Shown piece after piece: positions 39,461 through 45,822 of a stretch of 64,000 bases of DNA (the first letter of the stretch is position 1; each line of letters starts with the position of its first letter). The stretch comes from Paenirhodobacter populi. Lineage in GTDB: Bacteria > Pseudomonadota > Alphaproteobacteria > Rhodobacterales > Rhodobacteraceae. The notes beneath the pieces were generated by a model. That model searched no databases and was not told where the DNA came from. It saw only the letters and a list, made by a program, of their open reading frames with translations. A program made the position numbers and the translations under genes. The stretch spans positions 1-64,000 of the forward strand of contig NZ_SAUZ01000008.1 of NCBI RefSeq assembly GCF_004022215.1. The letters run 5' to 3'.

Positions 39461-40405
39461 ATGGCCCGTTACCTGCTGACCCGATCGCTCATGCTGTGTC
39501 TCAGCCTTCTGGCTGCGAGCCTTGTCGTCTTTCTGGCGATCGAGGTGGTGCCGGGCGATCCGGCCAGCTACATGCTCGGCATGAACGCCGCGCCGGATAC
39601 GGTGGCGGCGCTGCGCGACCAGCTTGGCCTCGATGAGCCGCTGGCATGGCGCTATCTGCATTGGGTCTTCGGCATGATGCGCGGCGATTTCGGGGTGAGC
39701 TATACCTACAAGGTGCCGGTCGCCGGGCTGATCGCCGACCGTCTGGCGCTGTCGCTGCCGCTTGCGGGGCTGGCGCTGGCGCTGTCGGCCGCGCTGGCGC
39801 TGCCGCTCGGGCTGATCGCGGCGGCGCGGCGGGGCAAGGCCGCGGATGCGGCGGTCATGGGCGTCGCGCAGATCGGCATCGCGCTGCCGAATTTCTGGTT
39901 CGCCATGCTGCTCGTGCTGCTCTTCGCGCTGCGCTGGCAGATGCTGCCGGCGGGCGGCTTTCCGGGCTGGTCCGATCCCGTCGCGGCGCTGCGGTCGCTG
40001 ATCCTGCCCGCGGTGGCGCTGGCCTTGCCGCAGGCGGCGATCCTCGCCCGCGTGCTGCGCTCGGCGCTGATCGAGACGATGGATCAGGACTATATCCGCA
40101 CTGCCCGCGCCAAGGGGCTCAGCCGCAGTCAGGCGCTGACCCGCCATGCGCTCAGGAACGCGCTGATCCCGGTGCTGACCATCCTCGGCATGCAATGCGC
40201 CTTCCTCATCGCCGGAGCGATTATCATCGAGAACGTGTTCTACCTGCCCGGCCTCGGCCGGCTGATCTTTCAGGCGATCACGCAGCGCGACCTGATCGTC
40301 GTCGAATCGGGCGTCATGCTGCTGGTCGTGACGGTGATCCTCGTCAGCTTCGTGACCGACCTCGCCTATGCGCTGGTCGATCCCCGGCTGCGGAGGCGGG
40401 GATGA
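39461..40405 (+). CDS. Peptide/nickel-type ABC transporter permease (DppB-like)
   Basis: This 314-residue inner-membrane permease has the N-terminal LTRSLMLCLSLLAASLVVFL helix and the typical FGVSYTYKVPVAGLI region. The EAA-like loop is DYIRTARAKGLSRSQALTRH. It belongs to the DppB/OppB group that imports oligopeptides or related compounds. It overlaps the next permease by 4 bp (ATGA). No substrate-binding protein gene is adjacent. Confidence 0.92.
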   Translation: MARYLLTRSLMLCLSLLAASLVVFLAIEVVPGDPASYMLGMNAAPDTVAALRDQLGLDEPLAWRYLHWVFGMMRGDFGVSYTYKVPVAGLIADRLALSLPLAGLALALSAALALPLGLIAAARRGKAADAAVMGVAQIGIALPNFWFAMLLVLLFALRWQMLPAGGFPGWSDPVAALRSLILPAVALALPQAAILARVLRSALIETMDQDYIRTARAKGLSRSQALTRHALRNALIPVLTILGMQCAFLIAGAIIIENVFYLPGLGRLIFQAITQRDLIVVESGVMLLVVTVILVSFVTDLAYALVDPRLRRRG

Positions 40406-41217
40406 GGCCCACCCTCCTCCCCGGCTTGATCCTGACGGCGGTGGCGCTTGGCGCGGCGCTTCTGTCCTTCGTCTGGACACCATGGGATCCGGGCGCGCTG
40501 GCGGTGACGCAAAAGCTGCAGCCGCCCTCGGCGGCGCATTGGTTCGGCACCGATCATCTGGGCCGCGATATCCTGTCGATGCTGATGACGGGGGCGCGGA
40601 CCTCGCTATCAGTCGCGCTGGTCGCGGTGGGGATCGGCGCCGGGATCGGGGTGCCGCTCGGCCTTGCGGCGGCGGCGCGGCGCGGCGGCGTGGTGGATGG
40701 GGTGATCGCGCGGCTCAACGACCTGATCTTCGCTTTCCCGGCGCTGGTGACGGCGATCCTGTTCACCGCGAGCCTCGGCCCCTCGGCGATGAATGCCGTG
40801 CTGGCGATCGGGATCTTCAACATCCCGGTCTTTGCGCGGGTCGCGCGGGCCGGGGCGCTCAGCCTCTGGACGCTCGACTACATCCGCGCCGCGCGGGTGG
40901 CGGGCAAGGGGGCGACGCGCATCTCGGCCGAACATGTGCTGCCCAATATCGCCAGCCTGCTGATCGTGCAGGCGACGATCCAGTTTTCGCTCGGCATCCT
41001 CGCCGAGGCGGGGCTGAGCTATGTCGGCCTCGGCGCGCAGCCGCCGACGCCCAGCTGGGGCCGGATGCTGGCCGATGCGCAGACCTTCGTCACCCTCGCG
41101 CCGCATGTCGCGCTGTTTCCGGGCTTTGCCATCGTGCTGACGGTGCTGGGGCTGAACCTGCTGGGCGACGGGCTGCGCGATGCGCTCGACCCCCGGCTCA
41201 AGGGGCGGCTCGCATGA
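40402..41217 (+). CDS. Peptide/nickel-type ABC transporter permease (DppC-like)
   Basis: This 271-residue permease has the DppC signature HWFGTDHLGRDILSMLMTGART. Its coupling loop is DYIRAARVAGKGATRISAEH, and the C-terminal end is LLGDGLRDALDPRLKGR. It pairs with the DppB-like protein to form the membrane channel. Both ends are ATGA overlaps, so the three transporter genes are translationally coupled. Confidence 0.93.
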   Translation: MRPTLLPGLILTAVALGAALLSFVWTPWDPGALAVTQKLQPPSAAHWFGTDHLGRDILSMLMTGARTSLSVALVAVGIGAGIGVPLGLAAAARRGGVVDGVIARLNDLIFAFPALVTAILFTASLGPSAMNAVLAIGIFNIPVFARVARAGALSLWTLDYIRAARVAGKGATRISAEHVLPNIASLLIVQATIQFSLGILAEAGLSYVGLGAQPPTPSWGRMLADAQTFVTLAPHVALFPGFAIVLTVLGLNLLGDGLRDALDPRLKGRLA

Positions 41218-42860
41218 ACCTGCTGACCGTCGAGGCGCTGAAGGTCACGATCGGATCGCAGCCGGTGGTGGAAAACGTCTCGTTCTCCCTCGCCCCGGGC
41301 GAGATCCTCGGCATCGTCGGCGAATCCGGCTCGGGCAAGTCGATGACCGCGCTGGCCATCATCGGCCTGCTGCCCGAGGGCGCGTGCGCCGAAGGCGCCA
41401 TCGAATTCGACGGCCGACAGATCCTGTCGATGGAGGAATCCGACCTGTGCGACCTGCGCGGCGACGGGATCGGGATGATCTTTCAGGAACCGATGACCGC
41501 GCTGAACCCGCTGATGACCATCGGCGATCAGGTGGCGGAAACGCTGATGGTCCACCGCAGGATGCGCCGGGGCGAGGCGCTGCGGATCGCGCGCGACCGG
41601 CTCGACCGGGTCGGGCTGACGGGGGATCGGTTTCCGCTGACCCTTTACCCCCACGAACTGTCGGGCGGGCAACGCCAGCGGGTCGCCATCGCCATGGCCA
41701 TCGCCCTGCGCCCCCGCCTGCTGATCGCGGACGAACCGACGACGGCGCTGGACGTGACCACGCAGGCCGGGGTGCTTGCGCTGCTGCGCGATCTGGCCCG
41801 CAGCGAGGACATGGCCCTGATCCTCATCACCCACGACCTCGCCGTCACGGCGGCCATGGCCGACCGCGTCGCGGTGATGAAGGACGGCATCGTGGTCGAG
41901 GACCGCCCGACCGAGGCGCTGTTCCGCGCCCCCGCCGAAGGCTATACCCGCGCGCTGCTGCACGCCTCGCTGCCGCGCGCGCCTTCGGCTTTCCCGAAAT
42001 ATCCCCCGGGAGTCGCCGCAGGCGACGGGGGCAGCGCCCCCGCGACGGATGCCGCCGGCGCGCTCCTGCGGGTCGAGCACGCCTGCCGCAGCTACCGCCT
42101 GCCGCGCCCCCGCCCCTTCGCCCCCCGGCCGCTGCGCGCCGCGGTGGACGATGTGTCGTTCCGGCTCGAAGCGGGGGAATCGCTCGGCCTCGTCGGACCT
42201 TCAGGCTGCGGCAAATCCACGCTCGCGCGGGCGATCGTCGGGCTCGACCGGCTGGACAGCGGCGGCATCACGCTTGCCGGCACGGCGGTGGGGCCGGACA
42301 TGCCCGCCCCGGCCCGCGCCGCGATGCAGATCGTATTTCAGGATCCCTACGGCTCCTTCGACCCGCGCCAGCGGGTGGATACGCTGATCGCCGAACCCTT
42401 CCACCTGACCGGCCGCCCCGCCGGCTGGCGCGACCGGGTGGGCGAGGCGCTCACCGATGTCGGTCTTTCCCCCGGCGACGGGCGGCGCTTCATCCACGAA
42501 TTCTCCGGCGGGCAGCGCCAGCGCATCGCCATCGCCCGCGCGCTGATCACCCGGCCAAGGCTGATCGTGCTAGACGAGGCGGTCTCGGCGCTCGACGTGC
42601 GGGTGCGGGCGCAGGTGCTCGACCTCCTCGAACGGTTGCAGGAGCGGCACGGGCTTGCCTATCTGTTCATCTCGCATGATCTTTCGGTGGTGGGGGCGCT
42701 GACCTCGCGCTGTCTGGTGATGGATGCGGGCCGCATCGTCGAGGACGGCCCGACTGCCCGGATCCTGACCGCGCCCCGCCACCCCGCGACGCAAAGGCTG
42801 GTCGCCGCCACGCCGAAGATCCCGCCCGGCTGGCTGACACCCGAGGAGAACCGCCGATGA
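41214..42860 (+). CDS. Fused double ATPase of peptide ABC transporter (DppD-DppF type)
   Basis: The 548-residue protein carries two complete ABC modules. Module 1 (about residues 1-250) has Walker A GESGSGKS, signature LSGGQRQR and Walker [13 protein letters not shown]. Module 2 (about 290-540) has [16 protein letters not shown] and [12 protein letters not shown]. They power the importer formed by the two upstream permeases. The linker at residues 259-278 is encoded by element copy 14, so an interspersed repeat forms part of the protein. Both ends are ATGA overlaps with neighbours. A fused pair is common in this family; the repeat-derived linker is not. Confidence 0.93.
41986..42041 (+). repeat. 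Interspersed element copy 14, inside a coding sequence
   Basis: GGCTTTCCCGAAATATCCCC matches the tail and core of other copies. It is followed by the hairpins GTCGCCGCAGGCGAC and GGGGGCAGCGCCCCC; the second is identical to that of copy 2. It is read in frame as [20 protein letters not shown], residues 259-278, between the two ATPase modules. Confidence 0.8.
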
Positions 42861-43846
42861 AACCCGGACCGCGCAACCTGATCACCGATGTCGCGGGGCT
42901 GCTGGTCGGCAATGCGCAGGATGGGCGGCTCCTGTCGGGCGTGACGGTGCTGACGGCGGACCATCCCTTCACCGCGGCGGTGCATGTGATGGGCGGCGCG
43001 CCCGGCACGCGCGAAACCGACCTGCTCGCCCCCGACAAGCTGGTCGAAAAGGTGGATGCGCTGGTGCTGTCGGGCGGCTCGGCCTTCGGGCTCGACGCGG
43101 CCTCGGGCGTGTCCGACGGATTGCGCGCAATGGGGCGCGGCTTCAAGGTGGGGGGCATGCGGGTGCCGATCGTGCCCTCAGCGATCGTCTTCGACCTGCT
43201 GAACGGCGGGGCGAAGGACTGGACCGACAACCCCTATCGCGCGCTCGGCCGGGCGGCGCTGGACGCCGCCGGGGCGGATTTCGTCCTCGGATCGGCGGGG
43301 GCCGGTCTGGGCGCGATGACGGGCACGTGGAAGGGCGGGCTCGGCTCCGCCTCGGCGGTGCTGCAAAACGGCCTCACCGTCGGCGCGCTGGTGGTGGTCA
43401 ATGCGCTCGGCTCCGCCACGGTCGGCGATGGCCCGGAGTTCTGGGCGGCGCCGTGGGAGCTGGACTCCGAATTCGGCGGGCACGGCGCGGCGCGCGACTA
43501 TCCCGCCGCCGCCGAGCCCCCGCCCGCGAAACGTCTGGGCGAGGCCACGACCATCGCCATCGTCGCGACCGACGCCGCCCTGACCAAGGCGCAGGCGCAG
43601 CGGATGGCAACGGCGGCGCATGACGGCATGGCGCGCGCGCTGGTGCCGTCGCATACGCCGCTCGACGGAGATCTGGTCTTTGCCGCCGCGACGGGGCTGC
43701 GCCCGCTCGCGGATCCCGTGGGCGACGGCTTCGCGCTGTGCCACGCGGCCTCGGTCTGCCTTGCCCGCGCCATCGCCCGCGGCGTCCATGCCGCGCGCCC
43801 GCAACCGGGCGACCGCCAGCCCTGCTGGTTCACCCGCTTCGGCTGA
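42857..43846 (+). CDS. P1 (S58/DmpA)-family peptidase
   Basis: The 329-residue Ntn-type hydrolase is related to beta-peptidyl aminopeptidases and the nylon oligomer hydrolase NylC. Conserved segments are NLITDVAGLLVGN, LSGGSAFGLDAASGV and TTIAIVATDAALTKAQAQRM. In NylC, self-cleavage occurs before the first Thr of NTT; here the preceding Asn is Ala (ATT), so processing may be altered. It overlaps the transporter ATPase by 4 bp (ATGA), which suggests that imported peptides or amides are its substrates. Confidence 0.87.
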   Translation: MKPGPRNLITDVAGLLVGNAQDGRLLSGVTVLTADHPFTAAVHVMGGAPGTRETDLLAPDKLVEKVDALVLSGGSAFGLDAASGVSDGLRAMGRGFKVGGMRVPIVPSAIVFDLLNGGAKDWTDNPYRALGRAALDAAGADFVLGSAGAGLGAMTGTWKGGLGSASAVLQNGLTVGALVVVNALGSATVGDGPEFWAAPWELDSEFGGHGAARDYPAAAEPPPAKRLGEATTIAIVATDAALTKAQAQRMATAAHDGMARALVPSHTPLDGDLVFAAATGLRPLADPVGDGFALCHAASVCLARAIARGVHAARPQPGDRQPCWFTRFG

Positions 43847-43859
43847 TCCCGGCGTTGCG

Positions 43860-43905
43860 GCGGGGCGCCGCCCCGCACCCCGGGATATTTATGGAAAAAC
43901 GACGG
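43860..43905 (-). repeat. Interspersed element copy 15 (single-hairpin form)
   Basis: The hairpin GCGGGGCGCCGCCCCGC, core ACCCCGGGATATTTATGG and tail GAAAAACGACGG lie 13 bp after the peptidase stop. The arm matches copy 16 over about 27 bases. Confidence 0.88.
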
Positions 43906-43921
43906 CAAACCCGCTTTCAGC

Positions 43922-43987
43922 CCGTCGTTTTTCCATAAATATCCCGGGGGTGAATTGCCCGGCACGGGCAAGAGGGGGCTGGCCCCC
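43922..43987 (+). repeat. Interspersed element copy 16
   Basis: The tail CCGTCGTTTTTCC, core ATAAATATCCCGGGGG and TGAA are followed by the hairpins TTGCCCGGCACGGGCAA and GGGGGCTGGCCCCC. It is the mirror partner of copy 15, with its head toward trcR. Confidence 0.88.
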
Positions 43988-44071: not shown

Positions 44072-44833
44072 TCAGCGGCGGTGATCTTCTTCTTCCTCGT
44101 CGTCGTCATCGGCATGCGGCAGGTTGAAGAAGCTGTCCGCATCCGAGAAATCCTTCGGCGAAGCGGCTTCTTCTTTGCCCGCGCCGAGGGTGAAGCCCTC
44201 GAGCCCGGCGATCGAAGACGGCAGGCGCGGCTCGGTCGGCATGCCGAGCGACTGTTCCGTCGACACCAGCTTGCGCCGCTCGTCGTCCGACATCACATCG
44301 GTCGCATGCTTCTTGGCGGCTTTCTGCACCTCGGCATCCAGCTCCGACTGCCGGCACAGGCCGAGCGCCACGGGATCCACCGCCGTCATGTTCTGGATGT
44401 TCCAGTGCGTCTTGTCGCGGATCGAGGCGATCGTCGGCTTCGTCGTGCCGATCAGCCGGGCGATCTGCGCATCGGCAAGCTCGGGGTGGAACTTCACCAG
44501 CCACAGGATCGAATTCGGCCGGTCCTGCCGCTTCGACAGCGGCGTGTAGCGCGGGCCGCGGCGCTTGTCCTCGCCCACGGCGGCGGCGTTGAACTTGAGC
44601 TTCAGCCGGTAGAGCGGGTCCTTCTCGCCCTTGTCGATTTCCTTCTGGTCGAGCTGGTTGTGCACGATCGGATCGAAGCCCTTCACGCCGACGGCCACAT
44701 CGCCATCCGCGATCCCCTGGACTTCCAGCTCGTGCATCCCGCAAAATTCGGCAATCTGCTTGAAGGTAAGGGTCGTATTGTCCACGAGCCACACGGCGGT
44801 GGCCTTGGCCATCAGGGGCTTGTTCGTCGTCAT
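44072..44833 (-). CDS. trcR: DUF1013 protein, TrcR-type cell cycle transcriptional regulator
   Basis: The 253-residue protein begins MTTNKPLMAKATAVWLVDNT and matches DUF1013 throughout. Two helix-turn-helix-like segments are LTFKQIAEFCGMHELEVQ and LADAQIARLIGTTKPTIASI. The C-terminus is acidic and disordered (ADDDDEEEEDHRR). In Caulobacter the homologue is TrcR, an activator of transcription linked to ctrA; that role is inferred here. AAAGGATCGC precedes the ATG. It is divergent from the RNase T2 gene. Confidence 0.9.
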   Translation of the reverse strand: MTTNKPLMAKATAVWLVDNTTLTFKQIAEFCGMHELEVQGIADGDVAVGVKGFDPIVHNQLDQKEIDKGEKDPLYRLKLKFNAAAVGEDKRRGPRYTPLSKRQDRPNSILWLVKFHPELADAQIARLIGTTKPTIASIRDKTHWNIQNMTAVDPVALGLCRQSELDAEVQKAAKKHATDVMSDDERRKLVSTEQSLGMPTEPRLPSSIAGLEGFTLGAGKEEAASPKDFSDADSFFNLPHADDDDEEEEDHRR

Positions 44834-45621: not shown

Positions 45622-45653
45622 GACGAGAAACCGATGCTTTCCGTGGGAACGCC

Positions 45654-45700
45654 GCGGGGCGCTGCCCTGCACCCCGGGATATTTATGGAAGAATGAAGGC
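45654..45700 (-). repeat. Interspersed element copy 17 (single-hairpin form)
   Basis: The hairpin GCGGGGCGCTGCCCTGC with one mismatch is followed by ACCCCGGGATATTTATGG and GAAGAATGAAGG. The arm matches copy 18 over about 27 bases. Confidence 0.87.
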
Positions 45701-45714
45701 AAACTCCCATTCAG

Positions 45715-45780
45715 CCCTTCATTCTTCCATAAATATCCCGGGGGTGAATTTGCCGTCAGGCAAAGAGGGGGCTGGCCCCC
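45715..45780 (+). repeat. Interspersed element copy 18
   Basis: The tail CCCTTCATTCTTCC, core ATAAATATCCCGGGGG and TGAA are followed by the hairpins TTTGCCGTCAGGCAAA and GGGGGCTGGCCCCC. The pair 17/18 has only 14 bp between its arms, giving a near-perfect long palindrome. Confidence 0.88.
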
Positions 45781-45822
45781 TTCTTGCCTCGCCACCGGCA
45801 CGGACGGAAGGCGGTTTCCGCC

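What the first reader, a model, noticed from the sequence alone, without database searches (positions are those of the whole stretch)
41986..42041. Interspersed element read in frame as the linker of a fused ABC ATPase
The DNA encoding residues 259-278 of the double ATPase follows the order tail-core-hairpin-hairpin of the intergenic repeat. It ends with the same GGGGGCAGCGCCCCC as copy 2 and carries an intact GTCGCC/GGCGAC stem. It falls exactly between the two ATPase modules. This resembles Rickettsia palindromic elements that insert in frame in genes. It may also have served as the junction when dppD and dppF fused, for example if the repeat originally lay at the dppD 3' end. Inference from sequence similarity.
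Basis: partly seen in the sequence, partly recalled or inferred. Interest (0 to 1): 0.82.

Follow-up and report, generated by a model that had tools for sequence, protein, structure and literature searches.

The report
Genome repeat reused as protein linker
A short hairpin-forming DNA repeat that normally sits between genes has ended up in frame inside an already fused transport ATPase, where it adds about 16 to 20 amino acids to the flexible joint between the two halves; related bacteria carry other versions of the repeat in the same joint and in the joint of a second enzyme.

Summary
Window 41982-42041 is a diverged, in-frame copy of an abundant two-hairpin repeat (277 copies in 2.45 Mb of this genome, 0 in the reversed-sequence control). 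It encodes residues ~257-276 of an intact 548-aa double ATPase. It is not the fusion junction: all 82 distinct linkers read come from fused proteins and 73 show no element (Walker A spacing 275-277 in 52 of 73, 292 here). So the insert postdates the fusion. Eight other orthologues carry a different version in the same linker, seven doublet-type, one only a left arm; in the six of those genomes searched, its head is a dispersed repeat. Of 277 copies, 2 lie inside called genes; the other is also in an interdomain linker, in xanthine dehydrogenase XdhA, where 13 of 17 relatives keep full, short or eroded versions, one of them matching PDB 2w3r. Best reading: a repeat associated with gene 3' ends lands in frame and survives only in flexible linkers. 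In-frame palindromic repeats are known (Rickettsia RPEs, intragenic REPs); this is a new family and context. What moves it is unknown.

The parts
41214..42860 (+). fused double ATPase of an ABC transporter (peptide/nickel importer superfamily, YejF/GsiA-like architecture), 548 aa
   Evidence: ORF and codon score; two ABC_tran stretches; best NCBIfam E-values to the fused YejF and GsiA models, both below their cut-offs
41982..42041 (+). in-frame copy of the two-hairpin repeat, residues about 257-276 ([21 protein letters not shown])
   Evidence: profile hit, 20.7 bits, with this copy left out of the profile
41997..42014 (+). repeat core AAATATCCCCCGGGAGTC
   Evidence: 260 of 277 own-genome copies have a readable AAATA[TC]..CC core
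42012..42026 (+). hairpin 1 GTCGCC-GCA-GGCGAC
   Evidence: read from the sequence; GCA loops and varying paired stems in intergenic copies
42027..42041 (+). hairpin 2 GGGGGCAGCGCCCCC
   Evidence: read from the sequence; same 15-mer in L001-L010
43849..43964 (.). example of the element's usual place: head-to-head doublet between convergent genes (arms 43878-43905 and 43922-43949)
   Evidence: inverted repeat I6, 28 nt, 100% complementary; genes 42857-43846 (+) and 44072-44833 (-)

Best explanation
The segment is an insertion of an abundant Rhodobacter-group palindromic repeat (head plus two hairpins, about 60 nt) into the flexible linker of an ATPase that was already fused. The repeat's usual place is the 3' end of genes, probably as a transcript-end or terminator-type hairpin. 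Here it reads through in an open frame and acts as a plain, probably disordered spacer of about 16 net residues between the two nucleotide-binding domains. Shown: it is a repeat copy, in frame, an insertion relative to most orthologues, later than the fusion; copies inside genes are very rare and both found in this genome sit in interdomain linkers. Inferred: it arrived by insertion or by conversion from another copy, and it survives because linkers tolerate extra residues while insertions elsewhere in genes are lost. Not known: what moves the element.
For: Independent profile hit, control 0. Walker A-to-Walker A distance 275-277 in 52 of 73 element-free orthologues (range 263-285) and 292 in the window protein. 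Orthology: a permease gene of the window's operon lies next to the gene in 37 of 37 loci examined, the S58 peptidase within the fetched flank in 15 of 37. 277 copies in 2.45 Mb (51% of the genome, 86% of it coding by my gene caller): 259 intergenic, 16 partial overlaps, 2 inside genes. The second, in XdhA, lies between Fer2_2 (to residue 146) and FAD_binding_5 (from 187). 110 of 172 convergent gaps hold a copy, against 15 of 291 divergent and 100 of 714 tandem gaps (Fisher p 3e-44 convergent against divergent). Hairpin 1: perfect stem of at least 4 bp in 189 of 195 copies with a recognised hairpin 2 (39.7 on average after shuffling), in 64 stem/loop combinations. In a model of mean pLDDT 87 the only stretch below 50 is 258-280.
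Against: No copy of the gene from a very close strain was at hand, so the exact empty site is not shown; the nearest orthologues are 72-73% identical. No mobilising enzyme: Y1 transposase (PF01797) has no match in the genome. Low pLDDT over the insert is partly expected because no other row of the alignment carries this peptide. Gene calls come from a simple codon-usage caller of my own; half of the genome was not examined. Selection on the linker peptide, translation and function were not tested.
Confidence: 0.85

Rival explanations
1. History A: one old insertion of the element in this linker before the near clade split, followed by repeated partial or full loss and by overwriting with other copies (gene conversion), so that the window copy descends from the doublet seen in relatives. 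(A and B are two histories of the best explanation, not alternatives to it.)
For: Same linker and same reading frame (AAA TAY = K-Y) in the carriers that keep the core; S-K-x-D after the right arm in L027, L107, L111 and L028; a left-arm-only remnant in L029 suggests decay by loss of one arm.
Against: Presence needs at least 4 changes on the tree and the carriers as one clade are rejected (AU p 0.0003; group named from the trait), so several losses are needed; the window copy has the tail hairpins that the doublets lack, and lacks the left arm.
Confidence: 0.42
2. History B: several independent insertions into a permissive linker, each from the local pool of copies.
For: In G011 both coding arms match that genome's dispersed head TTCTTGGCAAAAATACTC 18 of 18; that head has no match with up to 2 mismatches in the window's genome, whose coding copy is of the AAATATCCC..GAGTC two-hairpin type common there. 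Carriers are interleaved with non-carriers on the tree and L036 lies outside the main carrier clade.
Against: The window's core type is not private to it: AAATAYYCCNGGG occurs in all 18 genomes of the genus (19 to 343 matches). The shared frame would need coincidence or selection for the polar frame. Conversion explains the same data.
Confidence: 0.42
3. The repeat lay at the end of a separate dppD gene and became the junction when dppD and dppF fused.
For: Copies do sit at gene 3' ends.
Against: Fused orthologues without any element in Paracoccus, Brevundimonas, Caulobacter, Pelagibacterium and others.
Confidence: 0.02
4. Chance similarity of a GC-rich linker to the repeat.
For: The linker is GC-rich and the copy is diverged (20.7 bits against 40-67 for most window copies).
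Against: E 7e-4 over 2.45 Mb with zero control hits; core, hairpin 1 and hairpin 2 follow in the right order and the 15-mer is exact.
Confidence: 0.02

Closest known systems
Rickettsia palindromic elements (RPE; Ogata et al. 2000 and 2002, known to me here from passages of PMC10969869, and PMC3733652)
   Same: Palindromic repeat read in frame inside genes of an alphaproteobacterium.
   Different: RPEs are described there as about 150 bp with nearly half inserted in ORFs; here about 60 nt, two hairpins, 2 of 277 copies inside genes. No RPE sequence was compared.
REP elements, GTAG- and CGTC-tagged (PMC3733652: passages, and section 15)
   Same: Short palindromes mostly between convergent or tandem genes, dimers, a few inside ORFs; different REPs at about the same site in recB of two Xanthomonas species.
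   Different: GTAG in 0 and CGTC in 47 of 260 heads (17 nt before the core; the other end was not counted); no Y1 (RAYT-type) transposase gene in the genome; two successive hairpins after an A+T-rich core.
Intrinsic terminators
   Same: G+C-rich hairpins near gene 3' ends, strong bias to convergent gaps.
   Different: Termination was not tested; the coding copy has no T run after its hairpins.
Fused double ABC ATPases: YejF and GsiA (NCBIfam), PDB 8j5q (Rv1281c), 8wd9
   Same: Two nucleotide-binding domains in one chain.
   Different: In the three alignments printed, the solved proteins have other linkers.

Membership tests
Rickettsia palindromic element | in-frame insertion in an ORF, absent from homologues | tested here: met
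Rickettsia palindromic element | palindrome of about 150 bp | tested here: not met
   about 60 nt, two successive hairpins; size of RPEs from PMC10969869
Rickettsia palindromic element | large share of copies inside genes | tested here: not met
   2 of 277 copies
Rickettsia palindromic element | sequence relationship to RPE families | not tested
   no RPE sequence was fetched
REP / RAYT | GTAG or CGTC tag at one end | tested here: inconclusive
   head end only: GTAG 0 of 260, CGTC 47 of 260; tail end not counted
REP / RAYT | Y1 (RAYT-type) transposase gene in the genome | tested here: not met
   PF01797: 0 matches in the own genome; 5 of 14 control genomes positive
REP / RAYT | location at gene 3' ends, dimers | tested here: met
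   neighbours within 250 nt: head-to-head 26, tail-to-tail 7, direct 0
MITE | terminal inverted repeats and target-site duplication | tested here: inconclusive
   single copies are asymmetric, head plus tail; doublets have inverted arms; duplications not tested
Fused YejF/GsiA-type ABC ATPase | two ABC domains in one chain, best match to fused families | tested here: met
Fused YejF/GsiA-type ABC ATPase | score above the YejF or GsiA model cut-off | tested here: not met
   483.9 against 834 and 455.5 against 1077 bits; single-domain models (NikD, NikE, a dipeptide subfamily) do pass, with two domains added up, so no substrate is assigned

The most novel reading that the evidence does not exclude
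In the Rhodobacter group one palindromic repeat repeatedly supplies or rewrites interdomain linkers of multi-domain proteins: the linker keeps its place while its sequence is renewed from the genome's current repeat pool, so that linker length and sequence follow a non-coding repeat. The linker of the crystallised xanthine dehydrogenase (PDB 2w3r/1jro) would be an eroded product of this.
Probability: 0.3. Interest if true: 0.7.

Novelty: new variant of a known kind. Interest (0 to 1): 0.5.

Why it matters
It shows a short non-coding repeat becoming protein sequence, apparently only at places where insertion is tolerated, with several stages (absent, doublet, single arm, full element, eroded) preserved in living relatives and one eroded product in a protein of known structure. 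That makes the origin of interdomain linkers from repeats directly testable outside Rickettsia and REP-rich genomes.

Tried and rejected
Fusion-junction idea: contradicted by fused, element-free orthologues. Mobilisation by a Y1 (RAYT or IS200-type) transposase: no PF01797 match in the genome. A described RNA family: the Rfam gathering search of the window found only a tRNA. My first gene caller called antisense frames and was discarded; it was retrained on the operon's genes. XdhA linkers were read for 10 of 18 genomes by regular expression, for 2 in a changed version, and for 18 of 18 by alignment. The XdhA AlphaFold model is poor (mean pLDDT 60, linker and much else below 50) and is not used. 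RNA folding of linkers: carriers fold more stably per base in general, but there was no shuffle control and an element-free one (L112, -0.466) is as stable, so nothing rests on it. L028, L032 and L029 did not score in the profile search of linkers (E<=1); they are assigned by comparison with arms in loci of relatives (best 0 to 3 mismatches over 23 nt; 0 hits for 200 shuffles of the L029 query). Of the short XdhA forms L229 scored E 0.44 and the rest did not score at E<=10; they are assigned by eye on the alignment. L093 and L100 had no readable pair of Walker A motifs and were dropped. The tree used 41 proteins, a choice of mine from the 88. The search for related loci kept the best 80 of 398 relatives. 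8 of the 18 genus genomes (G001-G004, G010, G014, G016, G017) have no orthologue, only matches of about 50-53% identity or less. Literature on this repeat: searches naming Rhodobacter, Rhodobacteraceae or Rhodobacterales listed 7, 2, 0 and 12 papers, none about it by title or abstract start (10 of the 12 shown); most subscription journals are not held. Searches on RPEs and REPs in genes.

Full report
What is there. The window's gene 41214-42860 (+) encodes a 548-residue protein with two ABC ATPase domains. It follows two permease genes (39461-40405, 40402-41217) and precedes a family S58 peptidase gene (42857-43846), with ATGA overlaps at its start and stop. By E-value NCBIfam puts it nearest to the fused YejF and GsiA ATPases, far below their cut-offs; single-domain NikD, NikE and dipeptide models pass theirs with two domains added up, so no substrate is assigned.

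The repeat. The window holds 19 matches to TTCCATAAATATCCCGGGG with up to 3 mismatches against 0.01 expected; the genome has 324 exact AAATATCCCNNGGG, backward control 0. A profile from the 19 copies finds 277 at E<=0.1 in 2.45 Mb (window plus fetched stretches, 51% of 4.78 Mb) and 0 in the reversed sequence. Each copy has a T-rich head, a core AAATATCCC and usually two hairpins. Of 260 copies with a readable core, 228 match the second, G/C hairpin motif (6 after shuffling) and 257 have some perfect stem of 5 bp or more in the tail (137 after shuffling). Of 195 copies with a strictly recognised hairpin 2, 189 have a first hairpin of 4 bp or more (39.7 on average after shuffling) and 152 one of 5 bp or more (8.0), in 64 stem/loop combinations, often with GAA, GCA or GTCA loops. 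Neighbours within 250 nt are head-to-head 26 times, tail-to-tail 7, direct 0. Copies lie in 110 of 172 convergent gaps, 100 of 714 tandem gaps and 15 of 291 divergent gaps (p 3e-44 convergent against divergent, 5e-38 convergent against tandem). This is the pattern of an element at gene 3' ends; a terminator role is inference.

The coding copy. With this copy left out of the profile, 41982-42041 scores 20.7 bits, lower than any other window copy (32-67) but significant. It has the core with two substitutions, hairpin 1 GTCGCC-GCA-GGCGAC and hairpin 2 GGGGGCAGCGCCCCC, the latter shared with all ten exact GGGAGTC-type copies of the genome. In the predicted structure (mean pLDDT 87, pTM 0.80) residues 258-280 are the only stretch of three or more below 50; no other row of the alignment has this peptide, so this supports disorder without proving it.

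Insertion, not junction. I read the linker of 88 loci; six are the same contigs fetched twice, leaving 82 distinct. All are fused, as the search demanded. Nine carry an element: the window, seven with doublet-type sequence (L023, L027, L028, L032, L036, L107, L111), one with a left arm only (L029). In the other 73 neither profile scored (E<=1) and I see none. Walker A distance is 283-309 in carriers; in the 73 it is 275-277 in 52 and 263-285 overall. A permease gene of the operon is next to the gene in 37 of 37 loci examined, the S58 peptidase in the fetched flank of 15. So fusion came first.

Another form in relatives. In seven relatives the linker encodes EYLNQEE...SSWQKYS-like peptides, at the DNA level two arms like GAGTATTTGnnCCAAGAAGAAAC ... 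GTTTCTTCTTGGCAAAAATACTC. The head profile finds five of them (L023, L027, L036, L107, L111), not L028, L032 or L029, whose arms match loci of relatives with 0-3 mismatches over 23 nt. With up to 2 mismatches, TTCTTGGCAAAAATACTC has matches in 14 of 18 genomes of the genus, among them all six carrier genomes searched (G006, G009, G011, G012, G013, G015; 12 to 93 copies), and none in the window's genome. Of 42 head hits in 166 fetched loci, 34 are not inside called genes. In G011 both coding arms match 18 of 18 and stand 35 nt apart, the register of several other pairs there. Loci L159 and L171 join this head to the tail CGGGGGTGAGGGCCGCAGGCCCGAGGGGGCAGCGCCCCC (L171 with one base fewer), so the head types belong to one family. 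The window's core type is not private to it: AAATAYYCCNGGG occurs in all 18 genomes (19 to 343 matches).

History. On a tree of the ATPase domains without the linker (41 rows) presence needs at least 4 changes, and the carriers as one clade are rejected (AU p 0.0003; the group was named from the trait, so the p is indicative). One old insertion with losses and overwriting, or several insertions, both remain. The shared frame favours the first (or selection for a polar frame); the different make-up of the window copy and the exact match of the G011 arms to that genome's head favour the second, or conversion.

A second case. Of the 277 copies 2 are inside called genes, 16 overlap a gene edge and 259 are intergenic. 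Of the 9 partial ones inspected all touch a gene's 3' end and one also a 5' end. The second inside copy is in xdhA (L186:18067-18123), codons 162-181, between the iron-sulphur and FAD domains, in another reading frame (E-I-S-S-G-G). All 18 genomes have this gene. By the alignment, full two-hairpin forms stand in four (G000, G005, G010, G013; profile E 2e-6 to 0.02), short forms with core and second hairpin in four (G002, G004, G011, G017), degenerate ones in six (G001, G003, G006, G009, G014, G016), and I see none in four (G007, G008, G012, G015); short and degenerate forms are assigned by eye. In the full forms the first stem differs yet pairs: GCGGC/GCCGC, GCCGGC/GCCGGC, CGGGCC/GGCCCG, TGGGCC/GGCCCA, each around GCA. 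G003's XdhA aligns with PDB 2w3r over 460 residues with one difference that I see; that this entry is from Rhodobacter capsulatus is recalled. Its linker AQLSSGVRGQTAP would then be an eroded repeat product in a crystallised protein; whether it is ordered was not tested.

Other coding copies. In 166 loci of relatives (907 kb, with duplicates) the two profiles hit inside called genes 10 times: eight hits in the ABC linker (five hits in four genes without the duplicates), one in xdhA of G005, and one at the C-terminus of the ABC gene of G005 (L112). This sample is not random: it was drawn around the ABC gene, XdhA and repeat hits.

Mechanism and limits. What moves the element is unknown; no Y1 transposase was found. 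Insertion into most genes should break them; the two copies found inside genes are in frame and in linkers, which fits loss of the rest. Two cases are too few for a test of enrichment. Peptide-level selection, translation and function were not tested.

Known background. RPEs and intragenic REPs are in print (PMC10969869: passages; PMC3733652: passages and section 15). The 2013 survey reports REPs inside ORFs and different REPs at about the same site in recB of two Xanthomonas species, so recurrence at one site has a precedent. Its main text does not contain a word beginning with Rhodobacter. The searches made (listings only) showed no paper on this repeat.

Noticed in passing
L186:17207-18610 (own genome C12, about 97207-98610): Second in-frame copy, in the interdomain linker of XdhA (xanthine dehydrogenase small subunit), present in full, short or eroded form in most genomes of the genus.
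   Followed up: yes
window 43849-43964 and 45645-45782: Head-to-head doublets (28-nt perfect inverted arms, 16 nt apart) between convergent genes or behind a gene, such as GGAAAAACGACGG..CCGTCGTTTTTCC, that look like two-way terminators.
   Followed up: partly
L112:1414-3069 (G005): The ABC orthologue of G005 appears to end within a repeat copy (hit 1426-1457, opposite strand), which would supply its last residues.
   Followed up: no
linkers of L023, L027, L028, L032, L036, L107, L111 and L029: Doublet-type repeat heads read in frame as EYLxQEE...SSWQKYS in the same linker of relatives; L029 keeps only the left arm.
   Followed up: yes
genus-wide (G000-G017): Repeat heads differ between genomes (TTTCCATAAATATCCC; TTCTTGGCAAAAATACTC..TACGC..TACCT), as if partly homogenised within genomes, though AAATAYYCCNGGG occurs in all 18.
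   Followed up: partly
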